NCBI RefSeq assembly: GCF_030160295.1
Contig: NZ_BSOB01000005.1
Coordinates: 1-64,000, forward strand
Source of the DNA: Dyella acidisoli
GTDB lineage: Bacteria; Pseudomonadota; Gammaproteobacteria; Xanthomonadales; Rhodanobacteraceae
Direction: 5' to 3'
DNA: 64,000 nucleotides
Shown: piece by piece, positions 2,974 through 62,233 of the stretch
Position numbering within the stretch: position 1 is the stretch's first letter
Layout of the letters: the number at the start of each line of letters is the position of its first letter
Position numbers and translations under genes: made by a program
The notes under the pieces: generated by a model
Databases searched by the model: none
Told to the model about the DNA's origin: nothing
What the model saw: only the letters and a program-made list of their open reading frames with translations

Positions 2974-2983
2974 ATAGCGAGCC

Positions 2984-42947: not shown

Positions 42948-42978
42948 AGTTAATGCGCTTCTTTCCAAAGTGCATAAG

Positions 42979-43012
42979 CCGGCGCGGACTATGTCCGCGC
43001 CGGTTTTGTTTT
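42979..43012 (+). terminator. Intrinsic terminator for the GH5 gene
   Basis: CCGGCGCGGAC pairs perfectly with GTCCGCGCCGG around TAT and is followed by TTTTGTTTT. This is the strongest intrinsic terminator seen in the window. It works on the plus strand and separates the GH5 gene from the minus-strand genes beyond. Confidence 0.85.
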
Positions 43013-43072: not shown

Positions 43073-43300
43073 CTAGTGGAAGCGTTCCAGTCTTGGGCTT
43101 CCACTCTGTGCATTCACTCGAGCCACCTTGTGAAGGTCTGTGAATGGCACAGCCTCAAGATCTTTTGGAACCTCAAGAACTTCGTGCTTCTCACCTTTCG
43201 ATGGAACGTAGTGCACCGTGAAATCGGGACCACGCAATTTTTCCGGGTCGAACATGGTGAGGATGGTTCCATCCGAGTCATAGCTGACTGCGAGTTTCAT
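43073..43300 (-). CDS. Small protein of unknown function
   Basis: 75 residues, a good ribosome site (AAGGGGC) before the ATG. The sequence starts MKLAVSYDSDGTILTMFDPE and is charged, without signal peptide or membrane segment; the C-terminal half reads like short strands and one helix (FTDLHKVARVN). It lies 59 bases after the 84-residue gene on the same strand, so the two are probably co-transcribed. I do not recognise the family. Confidence 0.6.
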   Translation of the reverse strand: MKLAVSYDSDGTILTMFDPEKLRGPDFTVHYVPSKGEKHEVLEVPKDLEAVPFTDLHKVARVNAQSGSPRLERFH

Positions 43301-43359: not shown

Positions 43360-43614
43360 TTAATTGCTGCCAACCTGCAGGTTGTAGTAGGTGGAGTTTG
43401 GGCCATTGTTCTTAACCGTGTAGCCGAACGAATACTGGCCATGGTTGTTCAAGTTGACGGATTCTGACCCTGCGTAAAGCAAGGAAGCCCCGGTATTCAG
43501 CGGTTGGGGCTGAATGAACGTATCACCTTGCCAGCCAGAGTTATTCCACGTTGTGATCCAGCCTTGCGACTGACCATTTGCAATGTAAATGTTTCCAAGT
43601 GTGATGGATGACAT
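43360..43614 (-). CDS. Small beta-rich protein of unknown function
   Basis: 84 residues, AAGGAG site before the ATG. It is rich in Asn, Gly, Ser, Tyr and Trp (MSSITLGNIYIANGQSQGWI; NNHGQYSFGYTVKNNGPNST), with alternating patterns that predict a small beta-sandwich, perhaps a lectin- or aegerolysin-sized fold. It has no Cys and no signal peptide. It stands between the giant gene and the 75-residue gene on the same strand. Its Asn/Gly/Tyr-rich style resembles that of the giant protein's repeats, though no direct homology was seen. Confidence 0.6.
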   Translation of the reverse strand: MSSITLGNIYIANGQSQGWITTWNNSGWQGDTFIQPQPLNTGASLLYAGSESVNLNNHGQYSFGYTVKNNGPNSTYYNLQVGSN

Positions 43615-44160: not shown

Positions 44161-47100
44161 CTATTGCGGCACCAGGGCCTGCTGCAGCGTGTTGAAATAC
44201 GTGGCGATGTTTTTGGCAAAGACCAGTTCGATCTCTGTGTTGTCGGGCGTGATGGTGCTGCCCACTGTCTTGCCTACGAAGGATGCAGCGGGATATTGCG
44301 CTCGCAGGAAGCGGATCAGTACGTCCGGATCGCCGATGGGGAACGTGTCGAGCACGCTCATTGCCTTGTAGACCTGCACGTCGGCGAAGCTTTCCGCCGC
44401 CACGTTTAGGTTGGGCCATTGCATCACTCCCTGCACCAGCACATAGCCTTTCACCTGGCACTGGCCCGTGGTCTTGCTGTGCATGGTATCGGCGATGGTG
44501 AAGCCGGTGAACTCAGCAGAGTTCAGGAACGGACCGGAGGATTGCAGCGATTCGCTCGCCGTCATATCCGAGCTGATCCCGGAGACGAGGTAGTACCGCC
44601 ACTGGTCGCCGGGAGTGCCGTAGAGGTCGTCGTCGCCGGCAAGATTGAACACGCTCTGGTCATAGGTGGAGGGCGGCTGGATGTAGTAGGTGATGGTGCC
44701 GTCCACCGTCGGCACATAATCCGCCTGCAGCGAGTGGTAGAGCTTGCCGTCGTAATACTGGATCGGGTTGCCGTTCACGTCTTGATAGACCAACGTTCCT
44801 GCGGTGATAGGCACATTCACGGTAAGACCGTTGGGATCGAGATAGACGGTGTACACCGTCGATCCGCCCGGTTCGACGACATCGGTGACCTTGGTGGAGC
44901 CTGCCGGCGCAAACGCCGACATCGGCACCGTGTTCTGCCGCGTGATCGAGAGTGTCAGCGCGCTCAAGAGCTTGGCATTGGCGCTGTCGCCCCAGTTGAC
45001 CAACTGAGCCGGGTTCTTCGGAATGTCGAAGGGGATGACGTTGTTGGGTAGCACGGGCAGCCCTTGGCCGGTGCCGCTGGTGGGCACCGTGCCGATGCTG
45101 AGGCCTGATGCGGTGGGCGCAACCAGCACGACATTCGCCTCTACATCGTTGTACGGATTACGCGGAGAGGTGACAGGGCTGCGCGGCGGCTGGAACAGGA
45201 AATCGCTCACCGAGTCGATCACCGGCACCGCGAACACTGGATTGATCTGCGGCACAACGGTGCTGGCGGTGGAGATCGGCGGCAGGAAGCGTTCGGAATA
45301 CGTGACGCGGTGGAACAGGCGCCACGGTATCGAGTTGTTGGACTTCTTCGCGCTCAGCAGCGCGATGGCATCCGTGTCGCCGCTGTTGTTCAACCAGTTC
45401 TGATCCACCACCGTGTTCCAGAAATCATCCGCGTTCTGTTGTTTGGGCTGCAGGTAGAAGGTGTACGCGCGGAATCCTTTGGTTTTGCCCGGTCGATCAT
45501 ACGGTTCCAGATTGCCGGTAAGGCCATTGGCGTTGCCGGTGGCATAAGAAGGTTGCGGCTGCTGGTAGCTGAAGGTGGAGTCGATATTGTCGGAGATCGG
45601 CAGCCCTGCGCCCGACGTAACCGAGGGCACGATGTTGTAGACCAGCCCGTCTGAACCGATCACCAGGTTCAATCCGCTTTGGTTGGCCGGATTGAACGTC
45701 GAATTGAAATTCATCACGAAATGCGCGTCATTGTTGGCGGCATAGCGCATCTGTGTGTCGTTTTCGATGCCGTCGAAGGAAGACGCGACGTCGAATTGGA
45801 CATTGCCGGAATAAGTGACTTGGAATTTCTTCGTATGGCTTTGCACCCATTCATAGCCGCCCGACAAGCCGAGCACTTGCGATCCGCCAGCACTGACCTT
45901 CGCGTTGAAATCCACTTTCACATCCAGTGACGAGCTTTGTGTCGTGGTCAAAACTTCTTCGTAAGTGGTGGTGTAGGTGTGCTTCACCTCCTGCGTGCCA
46001 CCGCGGGCGGTCCACACATATTCGTTGTAGAAATCCAATCCCGGTGTCAGCGCATCGTTCGGCAACGAACCCTGGCTGTTATAGGTGGATTGATAGAGCG
46101 CCATGGCGTTGAATGCTTGCTGGTCGATCTGCTTCTTGAGCTGATAGGCCTCCACCACGCGCATGTAGCTTGCGTTGTGCCCGACCTCTCCCTGCGAGAA
46201 ATTGCCGTCGTAAACGGGCGAGAGCTGGCCGGTGGTGGTTTGCCAGGTGGTGACACCAGAGGCCAGCCGGGCAGCGTTGTATTGATAGCCGATCATGCCG
46301 TCCAGCACGCCCGGGCGGATGTATTTGCTGCTCATCCGGAACGACAGAATGTTGAGATCGCGTGGGATTTGCGCGTCGGGCACGCGAATGAAACCGAAGG
46401 TGGTGTTGGTCTGCAACAAGATCTGCTGATAGACGTCCAGCGTGGTGGAGGTGACGAAGGCCTGTCCATACGATGAGGGCACGAACATGCGCTGCCCGAA
46501 GCGTTCTTCGGTGGGCGCGGTCTTGGGCAGCGCGCCCGGCGGGTTGGACGTGGTGAAGCCGCCCAGAGCAGGGCTGGGCAGGATCGGGGTTTTTGATGCC
46601 GGTGTTCCCACCGTCGCGCTCGGCACGCTCAGCGAGTTCAGATTGGCCATGAAACTGTCGCCGGTATAGGGCGCCATCGTGCCTTCCAGCTTGACGGTGT
46701 ACTTGTGGCCCTCATCCAGCTTTTCAGTGGCGGTTTGTTGCGTGGTACTGCCGGTTCCGCCGCCGCCGCTGACAGTGAGTCCCGCGGATATGCCGATGTT
46801 GACGGTCAGTTTTTCGCCTTTCAGCCCGAAGCCCAGAGCCGCAAGCACCGGACCGATGCCCATCTGGAAGGACATGTTTCCGCCACCGCCTTTGGGCGGA
46901 GTATCAAACTGCGTCTTCTGAAGCGTGTCGTCTTGGTTGAAGGTCTGCTTAAGAACTCCGTCCGGCGTGTTATTGGTGATCGTGTATTGGGTGTCCGAGG
47001 GTTTTACGCCCGCCTGGGTTATGGTCACGCTCGCCGACGAAGGCGCAGAGATGCTCGCGGGGTCATAGTTGCCCGAGGCACCGCCGCTCCCCTTGTTCGT

Positions 47101-50100
47101 CGTGGCGCCGTCGTCGCTGTACGCGTATTTGAAAGAGAGCGAAATCGGCGCGTTGAAGGTGACGCTGGTAGCGCCGGCATACGTTGATTTGTTGGTGAGG
47201 TTGGCCATCGGCGCGGGCGGGGCGCCCTCGACATAGCCGATGATCTGCACGTCACCCTGTTCCTGGGACACCCAGACCAGTGACAGATCGCCCACTTTCT
47301 TGCCGGCATAGACCGTCAGCACATTGTTGCTGATGAAGACATAGGCTTCGTTGAGCACGCCCGCGAGCCCGCCGGTGACGGAGTTGACCGTCATCGAATA
47401 GGTAGTAAGGCTTGGCGGCGTATCGCACACGGTCAGCGCCACGCCGGGAGGCGTGTAGAGATTGGGTGAGACCAGCGGGCCGCATCGGCCGATCGCCGGG
47501 CAACCTTGCAGGTCGAGCGAGGCATTGACCAGATCGATAGTGAATGCCGCCGCATTCTTTACCGTCACGTTCTCGATGTATTTCGCCATCGGCAGCAGCG
47601 GCACGTAGACACCTGATGTACCGACAGAGAACGAGCCGGGCAGATAGAGCGTCAGGAACGGCTCGTTGGTGGTGACCAACTGCCCGAACATATCGTTGAT
47701 CACCTGATAGGCCTGACGCGCCATGCTCCAGAAACTGATTTCCTGGATGCGGTAGGTAATGCCGGCATTGAAGCTGAGGTAGTTGAATCCGGACGGGCTC
47801 GCCGCATTGGTGGACAGTGGGCTCAACGTAACCGCGCTGCCGTTGACGTAAAGCGTGATGCCTTCGATCTCGCGATGCGGCAAAGGCGCCAGCACCGCCT
47901 GCGTGCCGTTGCTGGATGCGGCGTATGCACTGCTGTCCACTTGATTGGCGACGATGCCGTTTGGATCGTAGGCTGCTTTCCAGCAGCCAACCAAGCCGGC
48001 GCCTTGCAGATCGGTGTAGCTGGCCTGGTCGATCTGCACGAAGCCCTGACTGGTGCGGATGCCCTTCTTGCTGCGGAACGCGCTGGCGAAGAGATAGACC
48101 TCGCGAATATTGCCGGGCGATCCGTTCGCGCCGAACGGGATCGCGGTGCCGTCGTCCTGGTAAGCGCCACCGATCACCAGATTGGCCGCTCCAGTGTTCG
48201 CGACCAGCAGCGCGGCGTCGGCGGCGTTGATCAGCGGGCTCGCCAGGCTGGTCCACGCACCATAGGAGCCATCCGTCTGCATCGGGCGCACGGCAATCGA
48301 AATGATGTAACCCGTGTCGGTGCTTTGTTGCGGCAGCGATGCCGCGAATGTCTCGAAGTTTGTGGCGCCGTCGCTGTCGTCGGGCGCGACGGCGATAGTG
48401 TTGTCGTTACCGATCTTGACCGAACTTGGCCCCTTGGGCGTTTTCATCATGGTGTTCGGATCGAAGGGCGGCGAGTAGGGATCGGTGTCGGCGTCATCCG
48501 AGCCCATCGGGGTCTTGGTGTGCTTGGTGATCAGTACCTGAAAGAACCCTTCCCCCAGCGCCGGGCCGGTGAAACTGCCGACGGTGCCGTCGCCGTTCAC
48601 CACATCCAGCACCACATGGTTTTGCGCGTCCAGCGTCACCCGGAAAGAGGCATGTGTCTGCGGTGCAGGGATCGCTGAACCGGTGCCCTTGTAGAGCAGC
48701 CCTTGCGTGTTTCCGGTGGCGCTGGCGGCGACGGTCATGGCGATCGTGAAATCGCGCTCGAAATTGAAACCGCTGCCGTTGGCGACCACGAAGGGGGAGC
48801 CGGTGCACACCATCACATAGGGCTGGGTGTAGGAGAGCGCAACATGGCGCCAGCCCGTGGTGAGCGTAGACGGCGTCGTAGAGGCCTGCATCACCGTGTC
48901 ATTGACGGTGACGGTGATCAGCGACGTGTTGGGGAAAGTGATATCCGTGTAGTAAATCAGCGAATTGTTGCTGATGCACGTGAAGATCGACTGCTCCCAC
49001 ACGGGCGTCACCGGGATCGAATGCCAGAACTCCACGGTGAAATCGCCCTGCGGTGTAATCAGGTTGGTGATGGCGTCGTCAAAGGAAACGACGGGCGTGT
49101 TCCATGCCGCCGAGAAGCTTTCCACCGGGCTCGCGGTTTCATCCACCGCAGTGGTGAAAGCGTTGTAACCCCCAGTCTCGAAAGTCAGTGGGGCGTAGGC
49201 GGGCAAGAAGGTGAAGGTGGCGGTTTGCGTGAAGCTGGGCAGCAGCTTCGGCACGTCGGCAACGATCTGGTTGGCGCTACTGCCCTGCGTGTAGATGATG
49301 TCGAACAGCGTCGGATTGCCGGAGGCATCGGTGGCAGGGAACTGGAAGGTGGTGCCGTTGACGATGACATTGGTCGGCTGCTGAGCGAGCCCATAGACGA
49401 GGCCGAACTGGCTTTCCACCGTGTTGAGCGAAGTCGCCGACCACATCGAACCGGGATTGATCCCCGCGGGCTTGGCATCACCCGCCGTAGTGCCGTCCGT
49501 AACCATGTAAGTCGTGCCGCCCATATCGAAGACGGCCAATTGCTGCTGCCCGACGACCGGCGCGGAGACGTAGACGCTATAGGACTTCTGCACGGCGACA
49601 TAGACGCCGCTGGACTTCACGAAGGTGTAGAGCACGTTCTTGTAAGTGAAGAAGTCGGCGTAACCCGATTCAGCGGTGCCGGGGTAGACGTTCAACACCG
49701 TGGTTCCGGCTGTCACCTTGCCGATGGGCGCGACCGAACCCGCGTAATTGCCAGCGCCAGGCGCGCCCATGCTGAGCGTGAACAGCAGGCTCGAGTCGAG
49801 CTTGAAGGTCAGCGCAGGCTGCGCGATCAAATAACTCTTGGTGCCAGTGATCGTCAGCAGGTTGTGCTGGCTGTCTTCCACATAGGCATAGATCTGCCCG
49901 TTGAGCGTGAAAGTGGAATTGGCGATCGGCTGACCGGCCTGCACGGTGATATCGGTCTGCAGCGGCGAGCGGTCGTTATTGCCGACGATGGTGTGCGGTG
50001 CCTGATTGGTATCGATGAGGTAATTGGCGCCGTTGATGCTGAACATCATCGGGTTGGCGATGAGCGGGTACGGGCGCCGGTTGTTGTCGGTCACCACCAG

Positions 50101-53100
50101 ATTGGTGGTGTCGAGCGTGAAGGTGGTACTGCCGATAGTGAAGGTGGGAATCTGGTTGACGGTGAACTGCCCCACCACGGACGCAGCGTTGTAGATGTCC
50201 GCATCGGCGAAGATGAATTTCGCCGTGGTGGTGTCAAAGGGATTGGAGAGGGTGAAGGCAGAGTTGGCGATAGGGATCGCCGACTGCCCCTGGCCGCGGA
50301 GCGTGCCCGTGGTCGTGCTGGCATAAGTGATCACGAAGATCTGGTCGCCCACCGAGATCAGGTCGCGGCTGGGCAGCACCGGGAAGCTGGCGGTAACGGT
50401 CTGCGGCAGATTGTTTTCGTCTAGATGGAGCGTGTAGACAATGGTGGAATCGCTCAGCGTGAACGTATTGGGCCCAGTGAATGGGAACGGCGGCTTGCCG
50501 GCACCCACTACCTTGCAGGCACTGTAGTTGTTGCCCACCGCGCCGGCGGTGATGGTGTAGAGCTCGCCGTTGATCTCGAAGCTGTCGAGGTTCACCGGCA
50601 CAGGCACGCCGCCGCTTGCTACGGGATCAACCTCGTCGATCTCGACGGTGAAAATGTCGGAGCCAACCGTCGCCACTCCGGCGTTGACATTGGCGCCCGA
50701 AATCACCGGGAACACCACCTGCACGGCGTTGTAGTGAATCAGATAGGTGTTGCCGTCCGCAGGCGTGAAGGCATAGCGCGTCGTCTCCGGCAGGATGAGC
50801 AGCGCCTCCACCCGATTGTCAGCGGTATCGACGTAGAAGGTGATGCCGGTCAGCGTGTCGATGAAGAACTGGCTGCGATAAGGGAAGCTCACCGAGATCG
50901 GGTTGTTGCCGCTGCTGTCGAAGCTGAAGCTGGCGCCGGCGATCGTATCGGTGAAGCTCACCATGTTGCCGGCGATCGTGGCGGGGAAGGCGGTCGGGCT
51001 CTTGCGATTGTCGGTGACGGTATTTGCGCCGACCGTGTACGTGACAGCACCACCTGGGTAGGTAACGGCAAACTGCTTGGTTGCACTGTTGTACGTGAGC
51101 CCGGCGGGCTTGATCGTCGCCGTGGTGGCGCTGAGCGTGTAGCTCAGCACCTGGCCCTGATAATCCAGCGTCACCGTCTGGCCCGCCAGCTGCGCCTGAT
51201 TGGTCGCCTTGGTGACATTGACGGCGTTGATGGCATAGACGGCTTTGCCGTCGGGCGAGAACTCGTCGTCCTCGGAAACAAGATAGCCCTTGATCGCTTT
51301 GCCCTTGCCGGTCTTGTCCACGCTCACCGTATAGGCAAGGGCGGAAAGCGGAGCGGCTTGCGGCACGATGAAGCGTCCGGCCACCATCGGCCAATAGGGC
51401 CCGGCGGCATTCGTAAAGGCGACATAGAGATTGACGGTATAGGTCGTCGGCTGCGCGGCCGGCCCGGCAATGAAGCTGTTGTTCTGCACCAGCAATACAT
51501 TGGGCGGCGCCTGGTTGTCGATCGCCACGGTTACTCCGGTCGCCACCGGAACCAGCGCAGTGAAGTTGCCGCCGCTGAGTGGCAGCGGGTAGGCGTTGTT
51601 GTTGGAATCGATGAAGACGACCTGTTGGCCCTGCCGCACGCAGGTATAGACGATGCTGGTAACGGGATCGGTAAAGGAACCACCCGTCAGTGCGTTCGCC
51701 GCCGCTGTCAGTGTCGCGACCGGGGTGACGGCACCGAAGGTCAAGGCGTTGACCGAGACCGTGCTGCCCGCAACCGTGATCGTGTAAACCAGCGGGATGG
51801 TGAAGTTGCTGCCGCTGATCGGGAAGACGCTGGTGATGTCGCCCGCGGCCGTACCGAAATCGGCGACAGCGATGTTCACATAATAGGTCGGCCCTCCAGG
51901 CACCTCGAAATAACCGCCCTGGCCAAGGTTGCTGAAGATTTCATAGCTATTGCCATCACACACGGCCGTGTTTGCGCTCAGTGTGTAGAGCTTGCCGGTG
52001 TTGGAGTCGGTGAATTGGCTATTGGCGATCGGGAAATAATGCGTGCCGTCAAAGGCGGCGATATCGCTCGCCCGCCCGAAGAACAGCGTCTTCGCACCGA
52101 AAGGCACTTGATTGGGAGCAAGCGGACCGCTGTTGACGAGGAAGGTTTTGCTCCCGCCCACGGTAATCGCCGCTGCGTCGTTGCGCAGTTGGTAAGTGAT
52201 GGCGCCGGCCTTGAATTGGGGCGCGGCGTTGGCGGCGGGGCTGGTGATCAGGTAGTAGGCAGCACCATCAAAGGCCGCACTCTGCTTCACGGTATAAGTC
52301 TGCCCGCCGTCGGTGAACTGGAAGGCGGCCACTGCCAGCGGTTGCGGAAGGCTGACGGTGCCGTCATTGCCGATGACGTAGCTCACCGTTTCATCGACGA
52401 AGGTGCGGTACACCAGAATGGGGTAGGTGATGCCGTCACCCACGACGGACGATCCATCGATGCGGTAGACGATGTTGCCGATGGTCACCGTATCGGCATT
52501 GGCCTCGGTGGTGACGGTGAAGCTGTTGTTGGCGGTCGCGATCGTATACGTGAAGCCGGACGTGGTCAGCGGATAGGCCGTGCCATTGCCGACGATCTGC
52601 CCGTTCATCGTATCGAGCAGATAAATGTAGTCCTCGATGGCGACGACATTGCCCTGATTGATGTTGAACTGACCGGAGATCGTCGCGCCGGCGAGCGAAC
52701 CGCCTTTCAACGTAACCGTGTATTGAGCACCGTCCAGCACGAACTGCGTATTGTTCGTCGTCATCACCACCGTGTTGCCGCCACCGCTGACGGTGTACGG
52801 CTGTAGATTGGTGTTGATGATGTAGACCACGCCGTTGAGCGAGAACTGGTAAGGATTGATGGGCAGCGTCTGGCCATTGCCGGTGACGCTGACCCAAGCG
52901 CCGCTTTCGGAGACATCGAAGGTGTAGAAAGCGCTGCCGAAGGTGAACATCTGCGGCGCGGTCATCAGCGGATAGCTCGCTGGGCTGCCGGTTGTCGAAG
53001 CGGCATAGGGGAACATCGGGCTGCCGTTCGCCGTGTAGACGCCGTCTTCAAAGCCGATCACATAGCCATACGCCGAATTGGAGGCGAAGGTCACTCCAGT

Positions 53101-56100
53101 CTGGATCGGCACGGTGGTGCTGGTGGCTCCTGCAGTGATGGTGACGGTGCCGTGGATGAGATCGACACTGTATTGCCGACCGACAACGCCCAGCCCGATA
53201 CCGTTGAGATTGCCGGGTGCGTTGAACACGTCGACGGTGGTGACCTGTTCGTTCGCAGGCAACCCACCGCCTGTCATGGAGAACGGGCTGAGCGTGATAG
53301 GTGAGGGCGCCTCGTTGGTCTGCGGCGCATCGAGCGAAGCGTATGTGACGGTATAGATCCCGCCCTTCATCGGATTGAAGGTGAAGAGAGTGCGGTCCAC
53401 CTGCACCTGAGTGTTGCCAGCCTCGAACAGATAGCTCTTGTCGCCCACCACCAGCGTGTAACGCGAGGTCACGCCATCGCTCAGTGTGGTGCTGATGTTG
53501 ACGGCATAGCTGTTGCCGTTGAACGAGAATTTGGGCGTGGATATCACCACCCAGATCGGGTTTTGCGGATCGGTGGTATCGACGAAATATTGTCCGCCAC
53601 CAGCGCTGCCGCTCTTGCCGGTCGAATCCATCACCGAGCCAGTCACGGCGTTGTAGGTATAGAAGACGCTGTCATCCCCCTTCATCGTTGTTCCGGGGTT
53701 GGGATTGGCAGCAATCTGCGGCGGAATGGCGCCCGCGCCCTGGAAAGCCTGGCTGAAAGATGTGCCGATCAGTGCGCCCTGGCCGTTGCCGCCATACATC
53801 CCGGCGGTGACAGTCTGCGGGGAAGTGGTACGAGGCAGGTAGCTGCTCTTGTCAGCCGATTGCAGTTGATCGACCGTCACCTGCTTGTCCAACCCATGCG
53901 ACAGCGACCCGTAGAACGCCAACGGCTTGCCCTTCTTGGGATCGAGGGGTTGGAGAGTGGTCGACCCTGCGATGGGATAGGCGATGTTGGCCGAGTAAAT
54001 CTGCGAAATCAGCACCGGCTGTTTGCCCGCGCCAAGCACGTTCAAGCTGTAGCCGCTGAAGCCTGGCGCGCCGGAGATCGGCGCGGCCGGGACCGGTGAA
54101 CCAGGCACCGGCGGCCCGGCCACCGCCTGTATTGGGATATAAGCGGGCGGCTGACCTGACGAAGAAGCGCCGAACACGGCGTACGCGATGTTCGACAGCT
54201 TGTTGATCTGCGTGACCAGATCCTGCGGATTGACGTTGTTGGGCGTCTCTCCGACAGCGGGTGTTGCAGCGGGGTTCGGCGGCGCGGCAAGTGTTACACG
54301 CAGCGTGAAGGTGTTGGTTTCGAGGATGCCGCTGCCACGCGTATAGAGCACATAGGTGTACAGCTCGTAGTAGTTGCCGTCTGTATCGACGTAATACTTG
54401 GCGACCTTGTTGCCGGTCCCCGTGCCGTCATCGACAAGACACATGGCGTAGCCCTGATCGATCAGCTCGAACGTGGCGTTGTCCAGTGTGTAGTAGTGAT
54501 CGCGCGAGAGCAGGAAGAAGTCGTATTTGGTCGGCAGTCCATACAGCGGGAAGCTGTTGGATATCGACGGATTGGTGCCGAGCGATGCGACATCGCGGTC
54601 CGCCTTCTTGTTGACGAACACCGATCCGGTCACGCCGTTCCGCAGATGCAGATTGATCGAGACGACCGAGCTGAACGTGTCCATCACTCCGATCGCTTGC
54701 GGCCTTACCTGATTCTCGAAGTTGAGCAACAGCGAACGGGTGCGATTGCTGAAGGTGGGATCGGCGATCGAGGGCGGTACGTTAGGAATGTAGTTCGGCA
54801 GACCGGGTGCGGTCTGCGCGTCATAGATCAGACTCCAGTATTGCCGAGGCAGGCTGAGGTCGGTGTCGTACATGGCCACTTCGTAGCCAAAGAGGTTGGC
54901 CACCTGATCGAGCAGTGGCACCTGGCTGGGCAGCACGTCGTTGACGTCGAAATGATCCGGGCTGGAGAACGTGTATCCAGTCGTCCCCAGGTAGCCGTTC
55001 AGCAGCACCATACCCTTGTTCGTGAGCGCAGGGTCATAAGCTTTCAGATCGGCCATGTCGTTGTTGTCATAGTCGAACAACACCGCGATCAGCATGTTCG
55101 CCACCGACGATACGGTGGAAATCAGTTGTCCGCCGGTCTGGTCGCTGGACAGCGAATTGGAAAGCGTCGACTCCTCGATGTTGTAGACCCCACCCGCGAC
55201 GGAGAGGAAGCTGTTCACCGAAAGCCCTTTGGTCTGCTGTCCGAGGGACGTCCAAACCGGGCGGTTGTGCGATGAATAGATGATGTTGGTCCGGTCCATG
55301 TACCAGCCGCCGGGCAGATCCTGCTGAGCGCAGATGTTGTACGGAGGTTCCCGGTCGTCGACCTGCAAATGGTCCGTTCGCCAGCAGATGCCTTCCTGGA
55401 TCTGGCCGTTGGTCAGCGCCAGCACCTGTTGTTTCGGGCTCAGCGAATATTTGTGCGTCAGGTCGTTGGGTGTGAACAGAACAGCAAGCGGGTCGTAGAC
55501 GAAATGCAGCTTCTGTAGCGAGAGAATCGGCTTGCCGTCCCCATCCAGATTGAAACCCTGCGGATAAGGGACGCCGTTCACCGTTTCGCCAGGCTGCGCG
55601 ATCACTTCTGCATAGATGAAGGTCCAGAACTGCTCGCTGAGGAAATTCGCGATGTCGGCGACGAAGCCCTTGCTCGCATCAAGCTCCGGGATCGGCACGA
55701 AGATCGTCGGGGCAAGGAAAGTGGTGCCGGCGATGCTCGTGAAATCCAGCGTGTCGAGGGAATCGACCATGGTGGTGGGCGTGTAGCTTTCACCGAAGAA
55801 TTGCATGGCGCTGCGCTTGTAGCGCGCGCCCTGCGCCAGCACGAGATGGCCGTCGGAAGTTGGCACAAAGGTATCGATCAGCAGTCCCGAACTGCAGCCG
55901 AGTCCGCCCACTGCCGTCAACGCGCTGCAATTCGATATCGCGCGCACCAGATAGACGAGGTTGTTATAGGGAATCACCTTGAACTGCGGCGTGGGCAGTC
56001 CGTTCTGATCCACAGGCGTGAAGAAGCCATTGGTGTCGCTGAGCCCATAACCGAGCGTGGTGACATCGGCGAGCGTGGTGCTTGCCAGGCCCACAACCTG

Positions 56101-59100
56101 GATTTCCGTCGGGAACGTCAGCACCTGGTCCGCACTCATCGGCAATTGCGTGGTGCCCGTGGTCGCGTTGATCGCGAAGCTGGAAAAGACCGGCGTATCC
56201 AGCAGATTGCCGGCGGCGATAACGAACGGCACGTTGGCAACGCTGATGGTTTGGACGGCCTCATACTGGCGGACAGAAAAACTCCCCGTCAGGTTGTACA
56301 TATGCGCGGGCAGGCTGGTGTCGACGTTGAATGCGTCATCCAGGCGCATCGGCACCAGGTCGCCGCCACCGAAGGCGAGAAACAGATGTGTATTGGTGGG
56401 TCGCGTGGACACCATCAATGTACAGGTGGCGTTCCAGTTGCGGCGGCGACAGGCGAAGGTGATGGGGCGGATGTCAGCGATGGCTGCAGTCGCTAGTGCG
56501 CCAAGCGAATAATAGGGCAGGTTGGTGCAAACATACGTTTGCGCGGCACCTATCGTGCTGTCCGTGATAATGGAATGGAAGGCCAATGTGTCAAAGCGAT
56601 TGCCTTGATCGGCAAGCGACCACATGTAGCCAAGAGAGAAATCGTCCGTTTTCGCGATCAGATTGGTGTAGGTCGGTCCCGTGTCCGGTTGCGCCAGATG
56701 ACCGAACTGATCGTGCGCGAGCGACGGCACGATGATCGACATGTTATAGGCCTTCAACCGCTGCACGAACACGACCCGCACGTAATAGGGGTCGTAGGTC
56801 GCGCCCTGCGTCGGGTCCGGCAATTGGTTGGGAGTGGTGAGGTCGGTCGGCACCAGCTCGATCAGGTAACACTCGCCGGTCTTGATGTTGTAGACCGAAA
56901 AACCGTAAGTCACCTGCGGCTTCTGCTGCTGGGGCACCACGCTTTCGGCCGTTGTGACCGTCGTACTCTGCGCGGTCGCGATGTCGAACTGCGGGCCGCT
57001 CATCTTCACCTGGGCAAGATTGGCCGCGGTCTTCTGTACCTGCAGATCGGCTAGCCGAAGATCCGTGTCCAGATTGGATGGTGAGGTGCTGATCGCGGCG
57101 GTTAAATTCTGTACCACGATGCCGTTGATCGCGCTTGCTGTCGTGCCCGTTGTCAGCGAGACCGCACTGGTCGCCACCGCCGTTGCGGCCAATGAGAAAT
57201 CGACGCCATAGGTATAGGGGTTCTGCTGGTTTGCAGCGCCGGGCAGCACTACTTGCTGACCTTCCGACACGCCGATGCCCGGCGCTGGCGCCGTGGGAAT
57301 TTGTACTTTCAGCAGGTTGAGGACTTCGTTCGCCAGCTCGAGCAAGTGATTGGGATCCACCGACTGGCTGTGCGTGTCGAAGGGAAAGCCCAGGATCGGC
57401 CAGACAACCATGCCGTCCGTATCCAGATACATCTGCATGGGCTCCTGCTTTCTTCGCATGACCTTGGCGATCGCCGCCGTATCGGCTTGCGCCTTGGCGA
57501 TGCGCGCGTCCTCGGTTGCGCCCGCATAGCGGATGTCGAGATAGGGATTGTGGCGGTTGGCAAATTGCCAAAAGCGCGAATCGGGCCAGAAATTCGGCGG
57601 ATAGGGCCGCTGCGTGGGATCGTCGGTCAATGCCGCCAGCTCGATCACGCTCAGCATGTAGCGCTTGCCGCCAATCATCACGCTGTCGGTTTCCGGTACG
57701 AACACGAATTTCGTTACCGTGCCGACCTTGGCCTGACGGACCAGCCCCAGCACGAACTGCGTCGGTGCAAAGGCCTTGGCGGAAAGATCGTCGGGCGTGG
57801 AGTTGATGGCGATGCCGGCGATATAGACGTTCGACGAGCTTGTCGATCCAGCCTCGCCGTTGTCCACGTCGATATTGGTGAAGACGAACAGCGAGCTGTC
57901 GGTGATCTGCAACGCATAGGCGGGCAGGCCACTGCTCACTGCGCCCAGCACCATGCTGCCGTCGAAGGAAGCACCCGGCAGCGACGAAGGGGAAACGGAC
58001 AGGAAGATCGGCACCGCCCACACCGTCATCGTTGCGGCACCACCGATGAAACTGCCGAAATAGAGATCGCCGGTTTGCGGCTTGGAATTGTCGGTCGGTG
58101 TGGGAGTGGTCACCGCAACGCCGCTGGCGACGACAACCTGATCGGCATCGAGAATGTCGAGCAGTGACTGCTTCGTCGCATGGTGGAGGCAAACCGAATA
58201 CACCTCTCCTTGCTCGATGCCGTTACTGCCGACCGCGGGTGCAGGCAGGCTGAGGGAGAGAAGCGGATACAGACGGATACTCGTCAACCCCGTCGTGAAG
58301 ACGATGGCACCGACATAAAGATGCTGCGGATCGGGGTTGGCAAGTTGCGGCGTCGCAGTCTGCTTGGTTCCGTCCGCGGCCCGCACCGTCAGCGCGGTGC
58401 CCTGCAGGCTGAAGACATATTGAGTGCCAGCGGCGAGCGTCACGCCAGCCGTGGCAAGCGGCAGATCGATCGGTGCCAGCGCGGGGCGGTCGCGATGGGC
58501 GTCGCACAGATTCAAGATGCTGCCCGAAGCATTGGCCTGGAACGTGCCGCCATCACCTAACGCCTGCTCGAAGAAGGCAGTGCCGATCGGGATGGCACTG
58601 ATGCCCGTGCTGGCGAGCGCCTCGATCGGAATGAATGCGTCCAACTCCGCCTGCACGGTGGTAGGCGGACTCGGAGTGGTGGAGGGCGTGTTGCCGCCTT
58701 GACCTACCGGCAACAGGATCGGCTGTCCCGGAAAGCGCGCGATGATCGGAACGTTGTTCGCAGGATTGACGGCCTGCGCGAGCACCGGGCGCGGCGTCGC
58801 AGCCTTCGCCGCTGCTGCGTTTGCTGCACCGCTGCCAGCAGGCACAGCCGGCGCGGGTGGCGTGGTGGTGACCGTGGCGGTTATCGGCACCGTCAGCTCG
58901 TCGGTGATGCCTGCCACCGGATTGGAGCTCATGTCGAAGGCGAGCGCCGCACTCATCACGCTCAGCCCGGCAGGCACGCCAGCTACGGAATAGGCGCCGG
59001 CGTACTCGATCATCTGCTGCAGTTGGTCGGGCGAGAGGATGTAGCTCGCTGCGGCAAATTTCGCGAGCACATTGGGCAGGTTGCCGCCGCTCAGGAAGGG

Positions 59101-60384
59101 GGTCGCCGGGTCATAGATCAACTCGGGCGATAGCGCATTGACGACATTGGCAATCTCGAACGCCGAATTGTTGGTTTGATAGTCGTAGATCGGATAGCCC
59201 AGGCTCTTCGCCCAGTCGTTGTCGCGATAAAAGCCAAGGATGCGCTGGCTGGAAAAAGCCGACAGCGGCATCAACGCAGTGCAGGTGAGTGCCGAAACGC
59301 CTGCTACGACGCCACCGCCCACTGGAGCGATCGAGTAGGCGATGGTGTCCTTGAATTGCGTGGTGACGAATTCATGGTCAGGAGCAACGAGCTGGGTTTC
59401 GATCGAAGCCGTCAGCGTTTCGGCTTTGGTGGCGTCGTAGCCTGGGCCGTTCTGAAACACGGCGGTTTGGCCGTAATCGAGAGAGGTGACCTGATTGCCC
59501 TGCTGCGTCGTCTGTGTTGCGCCGAAGCGGTTGACGGCGTACTGCCCTTGCGTCGCCTGATCGACGACATAGGCGACCGGTAGCACGAAGGTGGTCTGAC
59601 CAATCGCGTTATGAGTGGTGACGTCATAAACCAGCGAGGTTGCCAGCGGCACGATGATAGGGCTCTCGTCATACACCTGCCGGTTACCCACTTGCGAAAA
59701 ATCGCCGATCGGCACCACTTGCGCCATCGCCGATCCCATCAGGATTCGCCGCAGCCCGGTGGCCGGGTCATAACCCGTCGTTTCCGTTCCCACCATCAGC
59801 GAAGGGGGAATGATGTCCACCCTGCCCGGAACATAGGCATGGGTGACGAAAGAGAAAATGTCGCTGGCAGCCAGATCCTTGTACATCTGGAGGATGCCGC
59901 TGTCCGTCCGCTCGTAATGTTGGACGCCGCTGCCTTCCAGCGGCGCGTCAGAATCGATATCTGCCGCGATGGAAAGCAAAAACTCGTTCCGCACAGATTG
60001 AATGACGAACAGCCGGGTTGCGCCCAACCGTTGATAGGGATCAACGTTGGCACCAACCAGAGCGGTGCCGAAGCTACGCTGCGTGTTGGATGCATCGAAA
60101 TAGCTTTGCCCCAGCCAGCACAGCGCGCTGTAGAACCACGCCGGTGCCCATTGCAGGACGATGATGTGGAAGTTTTGACCCAGGCCCGGGCCAAGCGTCG
60201 GTCGCGGCAGTGGTCGCGGATCGACGATGCCTACCGGCGTGGCAATCTGGTTCGTGCGCGGGGTGCTGATGGCGGAACCCGGTTGAGATCGGAAGGGGGA
60301 TAGCCTTGCCCGTCGTTGCCATGGGTGGTGTGGACTAATCCTTGAAGCGTCGGCTGTGGCGTGCCGTTGAAATAGGTTCGCCAT
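44161..60384 (-). CDS. Giant beta-rich protein (about 5400 residues) with degenerate repeats and LamG-like segments, function unknown
   Basis: 5407 residues from the ATG at 60384 (GGGAGG site just upstream); the longer frame to 60456 lacks a ribosome site. No signal peptide, membrane helices, RTX nonapeptides or C-terminal secretion signal are visible. Residues about 1-2230 are unrecognised, with a Pro/Ala linker near 530. About 2230-3630 is an array of degenerate units of 40-70 residues of the form FxLNGxxYxI..GNGxxYPI. About 3760-4260 holds LamG-like sandwiches (FTVEFWHSIP; GWRHVALSYTQPYV; RIQEISFWSMARQAY). Near 4500 a Gly-rich stretch (MSFQMGIGPVLAALGFGLKG) and near 4800-4900 strand-rich segments (TYTTTYEEVLTTTQSSSLDV; KKFQVTYSGNVQFDVAS) look like amphipathic hairpins of pore-forming proteins. 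The intact 16-kb frame shows it is a maintained gene. It could be a toxin, an adhesin or a cell-surface polymer. Confidence 0.85.
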   Translation of the reverse strand: MANLFQRHATADASRISPHHPWQRRARLSPFRSQPGSAISTPRTNQIATPVGIVDPRPLPRPTLGPGLGQNFHIIVLQWAPAWFYSALCWLGQSYFDASNTQRSFGTALVGANVDPYQRLGATRLFVIQSVRNEFLLSIAADIDSDAPLEGSGVQHYERTDSGILQMYKDLAASDIFSFVTHAYVPGRVDIIPPSLMVGTETTGYDPATGLRRILMGSAMAQVVPIGDFSQVGNRQVYDESPIIVPLATSLVYDVTTHNAIGQTTFVLPVAYVVDQATQGQYAVNRFGATQTTQQGNQVTSLDYGQTAVFQNGPGYDATKAETLTASIETQLVAPDHEFVTTQFKDTIAYSIAPVGGGVVAGVSALTCTALMPLSAFSSQRILGFYRDNDWAKSLGYPIYDYQTNNSAFEIANVVNALSPELIYDPATPFLSGGNLPNVLAKFAAASYILSPDQLQQMIEYAGAYSVAGVPAGLSVMSAALAFDMSSNPVAGITDELTVPITATVTTTPPAPAVPAGSGAANAAAAKAATPRPVLAQAVNPANNVPIIARFPGQPILLPVGQGGNTPSTTPSPPTTVQAELDAFIPIEALASTGISAIPIGTAFFEQALGDGGTFQANASGSILNLCDAHRDRPALAPIDLPLATAGVTLAAGTQYVFSLQGTALTVRAADGTKQTATPQLANPDPQHLYVGAIVFTTGLTSIRLYPLLSLSLPAPAVGSNGIEQGEVYSVCLHHATKQSLLDILDADQVVVASGVAVTTPTPTDNSKPQTGDLYFGSFIGGAATMTVWAVPIFLSVSPSSLPGASFDGSMVLGAVSSGLPAYALQITDSSLFVFTNIDVDNGEAGSTSSSNVYIAGIAINSTPDDLSAKAFAPTQFVLGLVRQAKVGTVTKFVFVPETDSVMIGGKRYMLSVIELAALTDDPTQRPYPPNFWPDSRFWQFANRHNPYLDIRYAGATEDARIAKAQADTAAIAKVMRRKQEPMQMYLDTDGMVVWPILGFPFDTHSQSVDPNHLLELANEVLNLLKVQIPTAPAPGIGVSEGQQVVLPGAANQQNPYTYGVDFSLAATAVATSAVSLTTGTTASAINGIVVQNLTAAISTSPSNLDTDLRLADLQVQKTAANLAQVKMSGPQFDIATAQSTTVTTAESVVPQQQKPQVTYGFSVYNIKTGECYLIELVPTDLTTPNQLPDPTQGATYDPYYVRVVFVQRLKAYNMSIIVPSLAHDQFGHLAQPDTGPTYTNLIAKTDDFSLGYMWSLADQGNRFDTLAFHSIITDSTIGAAQTYVCTNLPYYSLGALATAAIADIRPITFACRRRNWNATCTLMVSTRPTNTHLFLAFGGGDLVPMRLDDAFNVDTSLPAHMYNLTGSFSVRQYEAVQTISVANVPFVIAAGNLLDTPVFSSFAINATTGTTQLPMSADQVLTFPTEIQVVGLASTTLADVTTLGYGLSDTNGFFTPVDQNGLPTPQFKVIPYNNLVYLVRAISNCSALTAVGGLGCSSGLLIDTFVPTSDGHLVLAQGARYKRSAMQFFGESYTPTTMVDSLDTLDFTSIAGTTFLAPTIFVPIPELDASKGFVADIANFLSEQFWTFIYAEVIAQPGETVNGVPYPQGFNLDGDGKPILSLQKLHFVYDPLAVLFTPNDLTHKYSLSPKQQVLALTNGQIQEGICWRTDHLQVDDREPPYNICAQQDLPGGWYMDRTNIIYSSHNRPVWTSLGQQTKGLSVNSFLSVAGGVYNIEESTLSNSLSSDQTGGQLISTVSSVANMLIAVLFDYDNNDMADLKAYDPALTNKGMVLLNGYLGTTGYTFSSPDHFDVNDVLPSQVPLLDQVANLFGYEVAMYDTDLSLPRQYWSLIYDAQTAPGLPNYIPNVPPSIADPTFSNRTRSLLLNFENQVRPQAIGVMDTFSSVVSINLHLRNGVTGSVFVNKKADRDVASLGTNPSISNSFPLYGLPTKYDFFLLSRDHYYTLDNATFELIDQGYAMCLVDDGTGTGNKVAKYYVDTDGNYYELYTYVLYTRGSGILETNTFTLRVTLAAPPNPAATPAVGETPNNVNPQDLVTQINKLSNIAYAVFGASSSGQPPAYIPIQAVAGPPVPGSPVPAAPISGAPGFSGYSLNVLGAGKQPVLISQIYSANIAYPIAGSTTLQPLDPKKGKPLAFYGSLSHGLDKQVTVDQLQSADKSSYLPRTTSPQTVTAGMYGGNGQGALIGTSFSQAFQGAGAIPPQIAANPNPGTTMKGDDSVFYTYNAVTGSVMDSTGKSGSAGGGQYFVDTTDPQNPIWVVISTPKFSFNGNSYAVNISTTLSDGVTSRYTLVVGDKSYLFEAGNTQVQVDRTLFTFNPMKGGIYTVTYASLDAPQTNEAPSPITLSPFSMTGGGLPANEQVTTVDVFNAPGNLNGIGLGVVGRQYSVDLIHGTVTITAGATSTTVPIQTGVTFASNSAYGYVIGFEDGVYTANGSPMFPYAASTTGSPASYPLMTAPQMFTFGSAFYTFDVSESGAWVSVTGNGQTLPINPYQFSLNGVVYIINTNLQPYTVSGGGNTVVMTTNNTQFVLDGAQYTVTLKGGSLAGATISGQFNINQGNVVAIEDYIYLLDTMNGQIVGNGTAYPLTTSGFTYTIATANNSFTVTTEANADTVTIGNIVYRIDGSSVVGDGITYPILVYRTFVDETVSYVIGNDGTVSLPQPLAVAAFQFTDGGQTYTVKQSAAFDGAAYYLITSPAANAAPQFKAGAITYQLRNDAAAITVGGSKTFLVNSGPLAPNQVPFGAKTLFFGRASDIAAFDGTHYFPIANSQFTDSNTGKLYTLSANTAVCDGNSYEIFSNLGQGGYFEVPGGPTYYVNIAVADFGTAAGDITSVFPISGSNFTIPLVYTITVAGSTVSVNALTFGAVTPVATLTAAANALTGGSFTDPVTSIVYTCVRQGQQVVFIDSNNNAYPLPLSGGNFTALVPVATGVTVAIDNQAPPNVLLVQNNSFIAGPAAQPTTYTVNLYVAFTNAAGPYWPMVAGRFIVPQAAPLSALAYTVSVDKTGKGKAIKGYLVSEDDEFSPDGKAVYAINAVNVTKATNQAQLAGQTVTLDYQGQVLSYTLSATTATIKPAGLTYNSATKQFAVTYPGGAVTYTVGANTVTDNRKSPTAFPATIAGNMVSFTDTIAGASFSFDSSGNNPISVSFPYRSQFFIDTLTGITFYVDTADNRVEALLILPETTRYAFTPADGNTYLIHYNAVQVVFPVISGANVNAGVATVGSDIFTVEIDEVDPVASGGVPVPVNLDSFEINGELYTITAGAVGNNYSACKVVGAGKPPFPFTGPNTFTLSDSTIVYTLHLDENNLPQTVTASFPVLPSRDLISVGDQIFVITYASTTTGTLRGQGQSAIPIANSAFTLSNPFDTTTAKFIFADADIYNAASVVGQFTVNQIPTFTIGSTTFTLDTTNLVVTDNNRRPYPLIANPMMFSINGANYLIDTNQAPHTIVGNNDRSPLQTDITVQAGQPIANSTFTLNGQIYAYVEDSQHNLLTITGTKSYLIAQPALTFKLDSSLLFTLSMGAPGAGNYAGSVAPIGKVTAGTTVLNVYPGTAESGYADFFTYKNVLYTFVKSSGVYVAVQKSYSVYVSAPVVGQQQLAVFDMGGTTYMVTDGTTAGDAKPAGINPGSMWSATSLNTVESQFGLVYGLAQQPTNVIVNGTTFQFPATDASGNPTLFDIIYTQGSSANQIVADVPKLLPSFTQTATFTFLPAYAPLTFETGGYNAFTTAVDETASPVESFSAAWNTPVVSFDDAITNLITPQGDFTVEFWHSIPVTPVWEQSIFTCISNNSLIYYTDITFPNTSLITVTVNDTVMQASTTPSTLTTGWRHVALSYTQPYVMVCTGSPFVVANGSGFNFERDFTIAMTVAASATGNTQGLLYKGTGSAIPAPQTHASFRVTLDAQNHVVLDVVNGDGTVGSFTGPALGEGFFQVLITKHTKTPMGSDDADTDPYSPPFDPNTMMKTPKGPSSVKIGNDNTIAVAPDDSDGATNFETFAASLPQQSTDTGYIISIAVRPMQTDGSYGAWTSLASPLINAADAALLVANTGAANLVIGGAYQDDGTAIPFGANGSPGNIREVYLFASAFRSKKGIRTSQGFVQIDQASYTDLQGAGLVGCWKAAYDPNGIVANQVDSSAYAASSNGTQAVLAPLPHREIEGITLYVNGSAVTLSPLSTNAASPSGFNYLSFNAGITYRIQEISFWSMARQAYQVINDMFGQLVTTNEPFLTLYLPGSFSVGTSGVYVPLLPMAKYIENVTVKNAAAFTIDLVNASLDLQGCPAIGRCGPLVSPNLYTPPGVALTVCDTPPSLTTYSMTVNSVTGGLAGVLNEAYVFISNNVLTVYAGKKVGDLSLVWVSQEQGDVQIIGYVEGAPPAPMANLTNKSTYAGATSVTFNAPISLSFKYAYSDDGATTNKGSGGASGNYDPASISAPSSASVTITQAGVKPSDTQYTITNNTPDGVLKQTFNQDDTLQKTQFDTPPKGGGGNMSFQMGIGPVLAALGFGLKGEKLTVNIGISAGLTVSGGGGTGSTTQQTATEKLDEGHKYTVKLEGTMAPYTGDSFMANLNSLSVPSATVGTPASKTPILPSPALGGFTTSNPPGALPKTAPTEERFGQRMFVPSSYGQAFVTSTTLDVYQQILLQTNTTFGFIRVPDAQIPRDLNILSFRMSSKYIRPGVLDGMIGYQYNAARLASGVTTWQTTTGQLSPVYDGNFSQGEVGHNASYMRVVEAYQLKKQIDQQAFNAMALYQSTYNSQGSLPNDALTPGLDFYNEYVWTARGGTQEVKHTYTTTYEEVLTTTQSSSLDVKVDFNAKVSAGGSQVLGLSGGYEWVQSHTKKFQVTYSGNVQFDVASSFDGIENDTQMRYAANNDAHFVMNFNSTFNPANQSGLNLVIGSDGLVYNIVPSVTSGAGLPISDNIDSTFSYQQPQPSYATGNANGLTGNLEPYDRPGKTKGFRAYTFYLQPKQQNADDFWNTVVDQNWLNNSGDTDAIALLSAKKSNNSIPWRLFHRVTYSERFLPPISTASTVVPQINPVFAVPVIDSVSDFLFQPPRSPVTSPRNPYNDVEANVVLVAPTASGLSIGTVPTSGTGQGLPVLPNNVIPFDIPKNPAQLVNWGDSANAKLLSALTLSITRQNTVPMSAFAPAGSTKVTDVVEPGGSTVYTVYLDPNGLTVNVPITAGTLVYQDVNGNPIQYYDGKLYHSLQADYVPTVDGTITYYIQPPSTYDQSVFNLAGDDDLYGTPGDQWRYYLVSGISSDMTASESLQSSGPFLNSAEFTGFTIADTMHSKTTGQCQVKGYVLVQGVMQWPNLNVAAESFADVQVYKAMSVLDTFPIGDPDVLIRFLRAQYPAASFVGKTVGSTITPDNTEIELVFAKNIATYFNTLQQALVPQ

Positions 60385-60834
60385 ATGTCCTCCCTCAGTC
60401 ATGCATCGGGACGAGGCAGTGCCGTTGACGGCGTTGACCTCGCGACCATCGCCCACAAGACGGAAAACACAGGCCGCGGTTTCCCGTGACCGATCTAACC
60501 GTCTCGAATGCTCAAGATTCCCAACGGGTGCTCATTGCGAGCAGGGCTCGCCACACCTTGGCATCCCGCCTCTTCATTGCCAGTTACACGACATGTGGCG
60601 TCGACCAGGAACGCACGCCAACCGGTAGCAAAATTACGGCAGGAAAATAAAGGACTCGCGATCCACCTGGCTCACTGGCATGCACTTTCTTCCAGCGAAC
60701 GTAGCCCCAACTCTGGGCGCGACTATTTGGAAGTACACCCGCCCCCCGGCAGGTTTGTTCAATCGCGGCGTGAAAGCTTAGTACGCATCGCGTCAATGGG
60801 ACGTCAACCTTGACGCCCACAATGATTCGGATCC
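60385..60834. other. Intergenic region upstream of the giant gene
   Basis: Holds the ribosome site (GAGGGAGGA, 60388-60396 on the minus strand) and must contain the promoter of the giant gene. No clear -35/-10 pair, repeat or further gene was seen. Confidence 0.4.
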
Positions 60835-61398
60835 TCAAGAGATTTTTGCGTTTTCATAGCCAAGGCGCTGCCGCAATCGCGGTGTTGCAAAATCCAGGAA
60901 TGCGCGCAGCTTCAATGGCACTTGGCGTTGTTGCGGATACACAAGACTGGCAGGCATAGGCGTTGGTTCGAACGCTTGAAGAAGCCGCACCAACGCACCC
61001 GATCTCAATGGCTTGGCCACTTGGTCAGATAGAACACGAGCAATACCTGCGTCAGCGATAGCTGCAATGACAGCAGCTTCAGCCGAATTCACTGTGAGGC
61101 GCGACGCTACCTGGATCAGTTGAGAAGTTCGTTCGAAGCGAAACTCCCATCTGTCTGCAGCGGCGTAACCCTCGTAGGTAATGCATTCGTGGGAAACAAG
61201 ATCGCCGGGACAGCTTGCAAAGGTCCCGCTTTGGATATCGCCTTTGAATAGAGCTAGACCCTTGGCCAAATCGGTCAACTCTTCATGGCCCACGTACACC
61301 TGGATGCAAAACAGGAAATCGGCACTGTTGGTCGTGATTTCCAGCTCGAGAGCGCGTTCGTCCTGCCATATCTTCTTGATGCGAATCCCGCTATCCAT
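60835..61398 (-). pseudogene. Chimeric ORF: unknown N-terminus fused to a LysR effector-domain C-terminus
   Basis: 187 residues in one open frame. Residues 1 to about 62 (IKKIWQDERALELEITTNSA, VYVGHEELTDLAKGLALFKG) look like the start of a small conserved protein. From about 63 the text switches to the C-terminal third of a LysR-type regulator: LVSHECITYEGYAAADRWEF, RLTVNSAEAAVIAAIADAGI, PLKLRAFLDFATPRLRQRL. The LysR DNA-binding domain is absent. So a deletion joined two genes, with the junction near 61212. The product cannot be a LysR regulator. Whether it is expressed or functional is unknown. Confidence 0.7.
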
Positions 61399-61446
61399 CC
61401 CTGCTCCCTACGCGCAACGTCAAATATTTAAGGCGCCCCTGTAAAT

Positions 61447-61470
61447 GTCCGCTCCGGGTCGGGAGCGGAC
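61447..61470. repeat. Palindromic intergenic repeat, copy 1
   Basis: GTCCGCTCC pairs with GGAGCGGAC around the loop GGGTCG, a perfect nine-base stem. It lies between the chimeric ORF and the next gene. Two more copies with the same plan are at 62205 and 62992. Confidence 0.7.
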
Positions 61471-61511
61471 TTTGCTATTGCATCGATTCGCCCGAAGCGT
61501 TTTTTTTCAAA

Positions 61512-62168: not shown

Positions 62169-62204
62169 GTCTTCCCTAAAGTTATGGCAATACAAAGCGA
62201 CCAT

Positions 62205-62228: not shown

Positions 62229-62233
62229 ATTAT

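What the first reader, a model, noticed from the sequence alone, without database searches (positions are those of the whole stretch)
44161..60384. A single 16.2-kb gene for a ~5400-residue beta-rich protein without a recognisable secretion signal
Seen: one open frame with no stop over 16 kb, a strong ribosome site, a 1400-residue array of degenerate units (FxLNGxxYxI...GNGxxYPI), LamG-like sandwiches and C-terminal amphipathic strand regions resembling hairpins of pore-forming proteins. No signal peptide, RTX repeats, autotransporter barrel or two-partner secretion domain. Proteins this large usually show how they leave the cell; this one does not. It is the best candidate here for an undescribed system, such as a giant toxin, a contact-dependent effector or an intracellular/surface polymer.
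Basis: partly seen in the sequence, partly recalled or inferred. Interest (0 to 1): 0.75.

Follow-up and report, generated by a model that had tools for sequence, protein, structure and literature searches.

The report
Giant leaderless bacterial protein, two hairpins
A single 16-kb bacterial gene encodes a real but rare and unnamed 5,407-residue protein that shares its C-terminal machinery with smaller proteins of other phyla, and that machinery carries two alternating strand regions like those some proteins use to punch holes in membranes, although pore formation is unproven.

Summary
In detail: one stop-free minus-strand gene, 44161-60384, encodes 5,407 residues. It is one protein: three homologous frames of 5,316-5,585 codons (50-77% identity) and one cut by a contig end occur in MAGs labelled Massilia, Eremiobacterota and Acidobacteria, under purifying selection in every segment tested. 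It is rare and patchy; its two small neighbours are not conserved. Almost nothing matches Pfam, NCBIfam, PHROGs or PDB sequences.

New: profile comparison shows a shared chassis (N-domain, LamG-like domains, C-terminal module) also present in 2,300-3,700-residue proteins on Streptomyces, cyanobacterial and Salipiger plasmids. The giant adds a 1,300-residue head, a ~34-residue repeat array and a tail. The C-terminal module holds two long alternating strand segments (aa 4404-4543, 4816-4880); four of the protein's five strongest alternation windows lie in or beside them, and across 14 relatives the regions beat random placement in 5,000 of 5,000 draws. By eye, the smaller plasmid relatives also lack a signal peptide.

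Best reading: a non-Sec-exported, glycan-binding giant with a two-hairpin, perforin-like pore module (0.35). A purely adhesive giant is about as likely. MACPF membership was tested and not met, though the tests are weak.

The parts
44161..60384 (-). giant gene, 5,407 aa, single frame
   Evidence: homologous frames; dN/dS 0.14-0.29 in six long segments against the Massilia MAG copy
60389..60396 (-). AG-rich ribosome-site-like GAGGGAGG, 4 nt before the ATG
   Evidence: read from sequence
56485..60177 (-). giant-specific head, aa 70-1300; no Pfam match, PDB matches no better than E=0.43, no plasmid match
55702..56292 (-). chassis N-domain, aa 1365-1561, aligned with the N-terminal domain of the smaller class
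   Evidence: hhalign 94% for aa 1454-1560 and 68% for aa 1365-1482
53635..55701 (-). giant-specific conserved region, aa 1562-2250; no Pfam or PDB match
49483..53535 (-). array of degenerate ~34-aa units, aa 2284-3634; no insertion or deletion of 25 or more residues between the giants
48514..49062 (-). LamG-like domain, aa 3775-3957
   Evidence: Pfam E=2e-4 below cut-off; hhalign 96.7%
47626..48117 (-). second region matching the LamG-rich part of the smaller class, aa 4090-4253
   Evidence: hhalign 95.2%
45223..47418 (-). C-terminal module, aa 4323-5054, shared with the smaller class
47215..47238 (-). motif GY(I/V)EGxPP, aa 4383-4390, found in some form in 14 of 14 module-bearing proteins scanned
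46756..47175 (-). hairpin 1 (putative), aa 4404-4543; a 66-aa stretch at 4438-4503 is present only here and in the Massilia MAG copy
45997..46020 (-). YVW-x3-GG motif just before hairpin 2, aa 4789-4796
45745..45939 (-). hairpin 2 (putative), aa 4816-4880
44164..45204 (-). giant-specific tail, aa 5061-5407, conserved among the giants only
43360..43614 (-). 84-aa ORF downstream; no Pfam or PHROGs family; not found beside the other giants
43073..43300 (-). 75-aa ORF downstream; no Pfam or PHROGs family; not found beside the other giants

Best explanation
The gene makes one giant protein that leaves the cell without the Sec pathway (by lysis or an unrecognised route), binds glycans on a target surface through its LamG-like domains, and uses its C-terminal module to assemble and push two amphipathic beta-hairpins into a membrane, working like, but not shown to be related to, perforin/cholesterol-dependent-cytolysin pores. 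The head and the repeat array act as a reach or spacer arm unique to the giants. Shown: single frame, whole-length conservation and purifying selection, shared chassis, LamG-like domains, two regions of strong strand alternation. Inferred: extracellular location, glycan binding, oligomerisation, membrane insertion, role of the array, target.
For: Of all non-overlapping 40-aa windows in 5,407 residues, ranks 1, 2, 3 and 5 for strand alternation lie in or directly beside the two hairpin regions (rank 4 is at aa 1317-1356). Residue shuffles within three hairpin segments never reached the observed alternation (0 of 500 each); in three control segments of the same module 70, 221 and 500 of 500 reached it (the hairpin windows were chosen after seeing the profile). 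In single sequences at least one hairpin region is among the five strongest 30-aa windows in 13 of 14 module-bearing proteins, both in 6 of 14; placing the two regions at random gave a mean of 5.6 (maximum 11, 0 of 5,000 reached 13) and 1.2 (1 of 5,000 reached 6) (the proteins are related, so not independent; two of the 14, from G878 and G608, were not used to choose the regions). Conservation is low there (0.33-0.54 per 20-aa block) against 0.58-0.74 in the conserved blocks, and MACPF/CDC hairpin regions are described as generally not conserved, with amphipathic stretches, and about 60 aa long in MACPFs (PMC2954219, passages). Order: hairpin 1, conserved block, GG, hairpin 2, the order that paper gives for TMH1, a motif ending in GG, and TMH2. 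LamG-like domains precede the module. By eye no signal-like N-terminus in the giants or in the 7 plasmid relatives read.
Against: No MACPF signature in any of 14 proteins, though the one MACPF protein fetched also lacks a relaxed form of it, so this test is weak. hhalign against that protein gives 0.7%, like control windows of the giant (best 0.6%); the yardstick is a single sequence. No Pfam match shared by most members and no PDB profile match better than E=0.074 for the module. Low conservation is not unique to the hairpins: blocks at 4701-4720 and 5041-5060 are equally low, and the measure divides by 12, so gappy blocks score low. Beta-sandwich strands also alternate; L010 has neither hairpin in its top five windows. 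A 66-aa stretch sits inside hairpin 1 in two of five giants. One divergent relative, L035, does start with a signal-like stretch. No structure could be predicted. No export, lysis or immunity gene was seen to recur beside the giants, but those neighbours were only read by eye.
Confidence: 0.35

Rival explanations
1. A giant surface or matrix adhesin: LamG-like domains and the repeat array bind polysaccharide or neighbouring cells; the C-terminal module is an anchoring or assembly domain with no pore.
For: LamG-like domains and a long beta-rich array without large length changes across phylum-level labels; 6, 4 and 2 Laminin_G_3 stretches in the three smaller proteins scanned; low Cys, Lys, Arg and Glu content, common in extracellular beta proteins (general knowledge).
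Against: No sorting signal, RTX or autotransporter family in Pfam and NCBIfam scans and no visible signal peptide; does not explain two long alternating segments of low conservation inside an otherwise conserved module.
Confidence: 0.35
2. A true, highly diverged member of the MACPF/CDC superfamily.
For: Two hairpin-like segments with GG just before the second (feature order from PMC2954219 passages).
Against: Signature absent, no profile match, longer stretch between the hairpins.
Confidence: 0.1
3. An intracellular giant (scaffold, storage or sheath-like polymer) that never leaves the cell.
For: No signal peptide by eye in the giants or in the 7 plasmid relatives read.
Against: LamG-like domains are usually extracellular (general knowledge); one relative (L035) combines the module with a signal-like N-terminus.
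Confidence: 0.12
4. A decaying or chimeric frame without function.
For: Patchy distribution.
Against: No stops in the giant frames; dN/dS 0.19 over the whole length and 0.14-0.29 in six long segments against the Massilia MAG copy.
Confidence: 0.02

Closest known systems
'LamG domain-containing protein' / 'LamG-like jellyroll fold domain-containing protein' (annotated, uncharacterised) on Streptomyces, Nostoc, Planktothrix and Salipiger plasmids; 'hypothetical protein' on a Calothrix plasmid
   Same: Collinear N-domain, LamG-like region and C-terminal module; no signal peptide by eye
   Different: Frames of 2,345-2,552 codons (3,686 in Calothrix); no match to the head and, in the profile comparison, none to aa 1562-2250 or the array; the 350-aa tail does not align; rows 23-29% identical to the giant's module
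MACPF/CDC pore-forming superfamily
   Same: Two amphipathic segments of low conservation separated by a conserved block, GG just before the second
   Different: No Y/W-G-T/S-H-F/Y-X6-GG signature, no profile match, longer stretch between hairpins, giant extra domains
Giant extracellular proteins of Apilactobacillus kunkeei (3,000-8,000 aa; PMC12863079, seen in search listing only)
   Same: Very large single bacterial proteins
   Different: Those are five consecutive genes; no sequence comparison made here
Large clostridial toxins and Tc toxins (recalled; listed toxins, not fetched)
   Same: Giant proteins; toxins A and B of C. difficile also lack a signal peptide (PMC6016235, abstract start in listing)
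   Different: No Pfam or PDB sequence match of the giant's segments to them

Membership tests
MACPF/CDC superfamily | Signature Y/W-G-T/S-H-F/Y-X6-GG | tested here: not met
   0 of 14 module-bearing proteins; definition from PMC2954219 passages. Weak test: a fetched MACPF protein lacks even a relaxed form
MACPF/CDC superfamily | Profile match to PF01823 or to a family member | tested here: not met
   No PF01823 among the families listed at E<=10 for 12 members; hhalign 0.7% against one MACPF protein
MACPF/CDC superfamily | Two amphipathic segments that become transmembrane hairpins | tested here: inconclusive
   Alternation present and above the controls; insertion not testable
MACPF/CDC superfamily | Bent four-stranded sheet fold | not testable with these tools
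   Structure prediction switched off
LamG-domain proteins | Laminin_G_3 domain | tested here: inconclusive
   E=2e-4 but 21.9 bits, below the 27.6 cut-off, in the giant; far above the cut-off in 3 of 3 smaller proteins scanned; hhalign link 96.7%
Unnamed EGxPP-module family | C-terminal module with EGxPP, LDG and YVW-x3-GG blocks | tested here: met
RTX / autotransporter / two-partner secreted giants | RTX repeats, barrel or TPS domain | tested here: not met
   No such family in Pfam or NCBIfam scans at E<=1 over the whole protein

The most novel reading that the evidence does not exclude
An undescribed, cross-phylum family of non-Sec-exported pore formers, in which a two-hairpin C-terminal module is delivered by lectin-like domains and, in the giants, by an arm of some 3,700 residues, making it one of the largest single-chain bacterial pore formers.
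Probability: 0.25. Interest if true: 0.8.

Novelty: new variant of a known kind. Interest (0 to 1): 0.55.

Why it matters
Some 5,000 residues of conserved, selected protein match no curated family, yet the chassis recurs on plasmids of Streptomyces, cyanobacteria and Salipiger, and the giant itself in MAGs carrying three phylum-level labels. If the module forms pores, it adds a new pore-forming family and asks how a protein of very roughly 550-600 kDa (my estimate) without a signal peptide leaves a bacterium. If it does not, it still defines a large unnamed extracellular-type family that annotation now hides under 'LamG domain-containing protein'.

Tried and rejected
Tried without result: Pfam, NCBIfam and PHROGs on slices (apart from LamG only scattered hits, best Peptidase_M23 E=0.004) and Pfam on alignment members (for the module Pox_VERT_large in 4 of 12 members, best 0.03, and PKD domains in one member; for the array Lsr2 in 2 of 5, best 3e-5, and Peptidase_M23 in 1 of 5; all treated as chance or member-specific, Lsr2 not followed up). 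PDB sequence searches with the giant (best E=0.028, treated as chance); with the Streptomyces relative three weak chains, best 1.6e-4 in its LamG part. Phage and viral-contig searches (none). Head against plasmids (none). MACPF family in Acidobacteriota-side genomes (0 of 247).

Rejected: conserved operon with the two small genes; assembly artefact; architecture of Tc or large clostridial toxins (no matches). Not settled: a mobile island. No tRNA gene in the window, no repeat of 20 nt or more with one copy on each side of the gene, none of the six flanking proteins scanned is a transposase or integrase, no phage match; but genes further out were not tested for mobility.

Literature: searches; the listings (titles and abstract starts) showed no paper on this family, and 88 and 89 returned zero papers. 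They cover open PMC papers only.

Full report
OBSERVATION. The gene runs on the minus strand from ATG 60384 to stop 44161 and encodes 5,407 residues without a stop. In 20 order-1 simulations of the same length the longest stop-free run was 369 codons. GAGGGAGG lies 4 nt before the ATG.

ONE PROTEIN, NOT A CHANCE FRAME. A scan of genome contigs with the last 1,407 residues gave 4 loci. Extending three of them gave frames of 5,359 codons (MAG labelled Massilia, 77% identity), 5,316 (Eremiobacterota MAG, 54%) and 5,585 (Granulicella MAG, 50-57% in pieces); the fourth, an Acidobacteriaceae MAG, runs into its contig end at 4,105 codons (58%) (lengths are stop to stop, true starts not determined). 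Identity is spread over the whole length; in the array region 2251-3750 no insertion or deletion of 25 or more residues was found. Against the Massilia copy dN/dS is 0.19 overall, 0.14-0.29 in six long segments and 0.06-0.21 in three short hairpin segments (one pair of sequences). GC3 is 0.78 against 0.56-0.72 in seven other window genes.

DISTRIBUTION. With the C-terminal query or profile: 1 of 299 genomes of the same order (own only), 1 of 197 of the same family (own only), 3 of 398 of the phylum (own, G878, G608), 1 of 297 in the phylum of the Acidobacteriaceae MAG (that genome itself), 1 of 149 in the phylum of the Eremiobacterota MAG (that genome itself). With the aa 1301-2250 profile: 1 of 17 in the Massilia MAG's genus (that genome itself). 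The larger sets are samples of bigger groups. Plasmids: 9 of 72,556 records match the C-terminal part, none the head. Phages and viral contigs: none. The giants look rare and horizontally scattered; all four giant relatives are MAGs, so mis-binning of single contigs cannot be excluded.

ARCHITECTURE. Five giants and seven plasmid proteins align over the C-terminal module with invariant blocks such as EGxPP, LDG, SY, YVW-x3-GG and WR...R.TY..R. Profile-profile comparison of 240-aa windows (777 pairs) shows further collinear links: giant 1365-1561 with the smaller class's N-domain (68-94%), 3822-3957 with its LamG-rich part (96.7%), 4090-4430 with its last LamG-rich part and module start (95-99.8%). 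So the smaller proteins (2,345-2,552 codons; 3,686 in Calothrix) are the chassis, and the giant adds a head (1-1300), a conserved block (1562-2250), a repeat array of ~34-aa units (2284-3634) and a tail (5061-5407). One relative, G878, has the module in a 779-aa ORF after a 1,336-aa LamG-like ORF; whether that is natural or a frameshift was not tested. Another, G608, has a 1,568-aa protein with a signal-like N-terminus, FG-GAP-like repeats (by eye, recalled name), the module and a serine-rich stretch.

HAIRPINS. Averaged over 12 homologues, strand alternation is raised at aa 4401-4440 and peaks at 4501-4540 and 4821-4900. In the whole giant (five giants averaged) the windows starting 4857, 4502 and 4817 rank 1-3 and 4409 ranks 5. 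Residue shuffles within three hairpin segments never reached the observed value (0 of 500 each); control segments were reached in 70, 221 and 500 of 500. In single sequences at least one hairpin region is in the top five windows in 13 of 14 module-bearing proteins, both in 6 of 14; random placement of the regions gave means of 5.6 and 1.2, and reached those counts in 0 and 1 of 5,000 draws (relatedness not corrected). This is what exposed, membrane-inserting hairpins look like, but sandwich strands can mimic it; conservation is equally low in some blocks outside the hairpins; and the giant and its Massilia relative carry a 66-aa extra stretch within hairpin 1.

KNOWN FAMILIES. MACPF signature: 0 of 14. 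PF01823: not listed at E<=10 for 12 members. hhalign with one MACPF protein: 0.7%, controls up to 0.6%. That protein itself lacks a relaxed form of the signature, and a single sequence is a weak yardstick, so distant kinship is not excluded. The module may work like a perforin-type pore; it is not shown to be one.

NEIGHBOURHOOD. The 84- and 75-aa genes downstream match no Pfam family and have no match better than E=0.43 in the other giants' loci; the neighbours of the other giants, read by eye and not scanned, differ from locus to locus. The gene appears to be a one-gene unit.

EXPORT. No N-terminal hydrophobic stretch in the giant; the 7 plasmid proteins read begin near their N-domain without one (by eye, some start codons uncertain, L010 at the very start of its record). 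G608's relative is the exception. The lack of a signal peptide thus looks like a family feature rather than a quirk of this genome.

Noticed in passing
window 61445-61473, 62203-62231, 62991-63019: Three copies (100, 83, 69% to the reference) of a 29-nt, partly palindromic, REP-like element upstream of the giant.
   Followed up: no
window 60835-61398: 187-aa ORF matching only the C-terminal half of the LysR substrate-binding domain, from residue 64 on; looks like a truncated regulator, possibly marking a rearrangement next to the giant.
   Followed up: no
window 3421-8916: 1,831-aa protein with an extended type V signal peptide (ESPR) and PATR repeats, so probably an autotransporter.
   Followed up: no
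window 41075-42877 and 24360-27239: GH5-cellulase-like and alginate-lyase-like proteins, both with ricin-type lectin domains.
   Followed up: no
window 42976-43006: 14-bp GC-rich stem-loop just after the 75-aa ORF, scored as terminator-like on the + strand (2 found, 2.1 expected by shuffling).
   Followed up: no
L034 11648-13087: 479-aa ORF after the split relative, by eye with a Hint-like start and a metalloprotease-like HExxH motif; no Pfam match at E<=0.01.
   Followed up: partly
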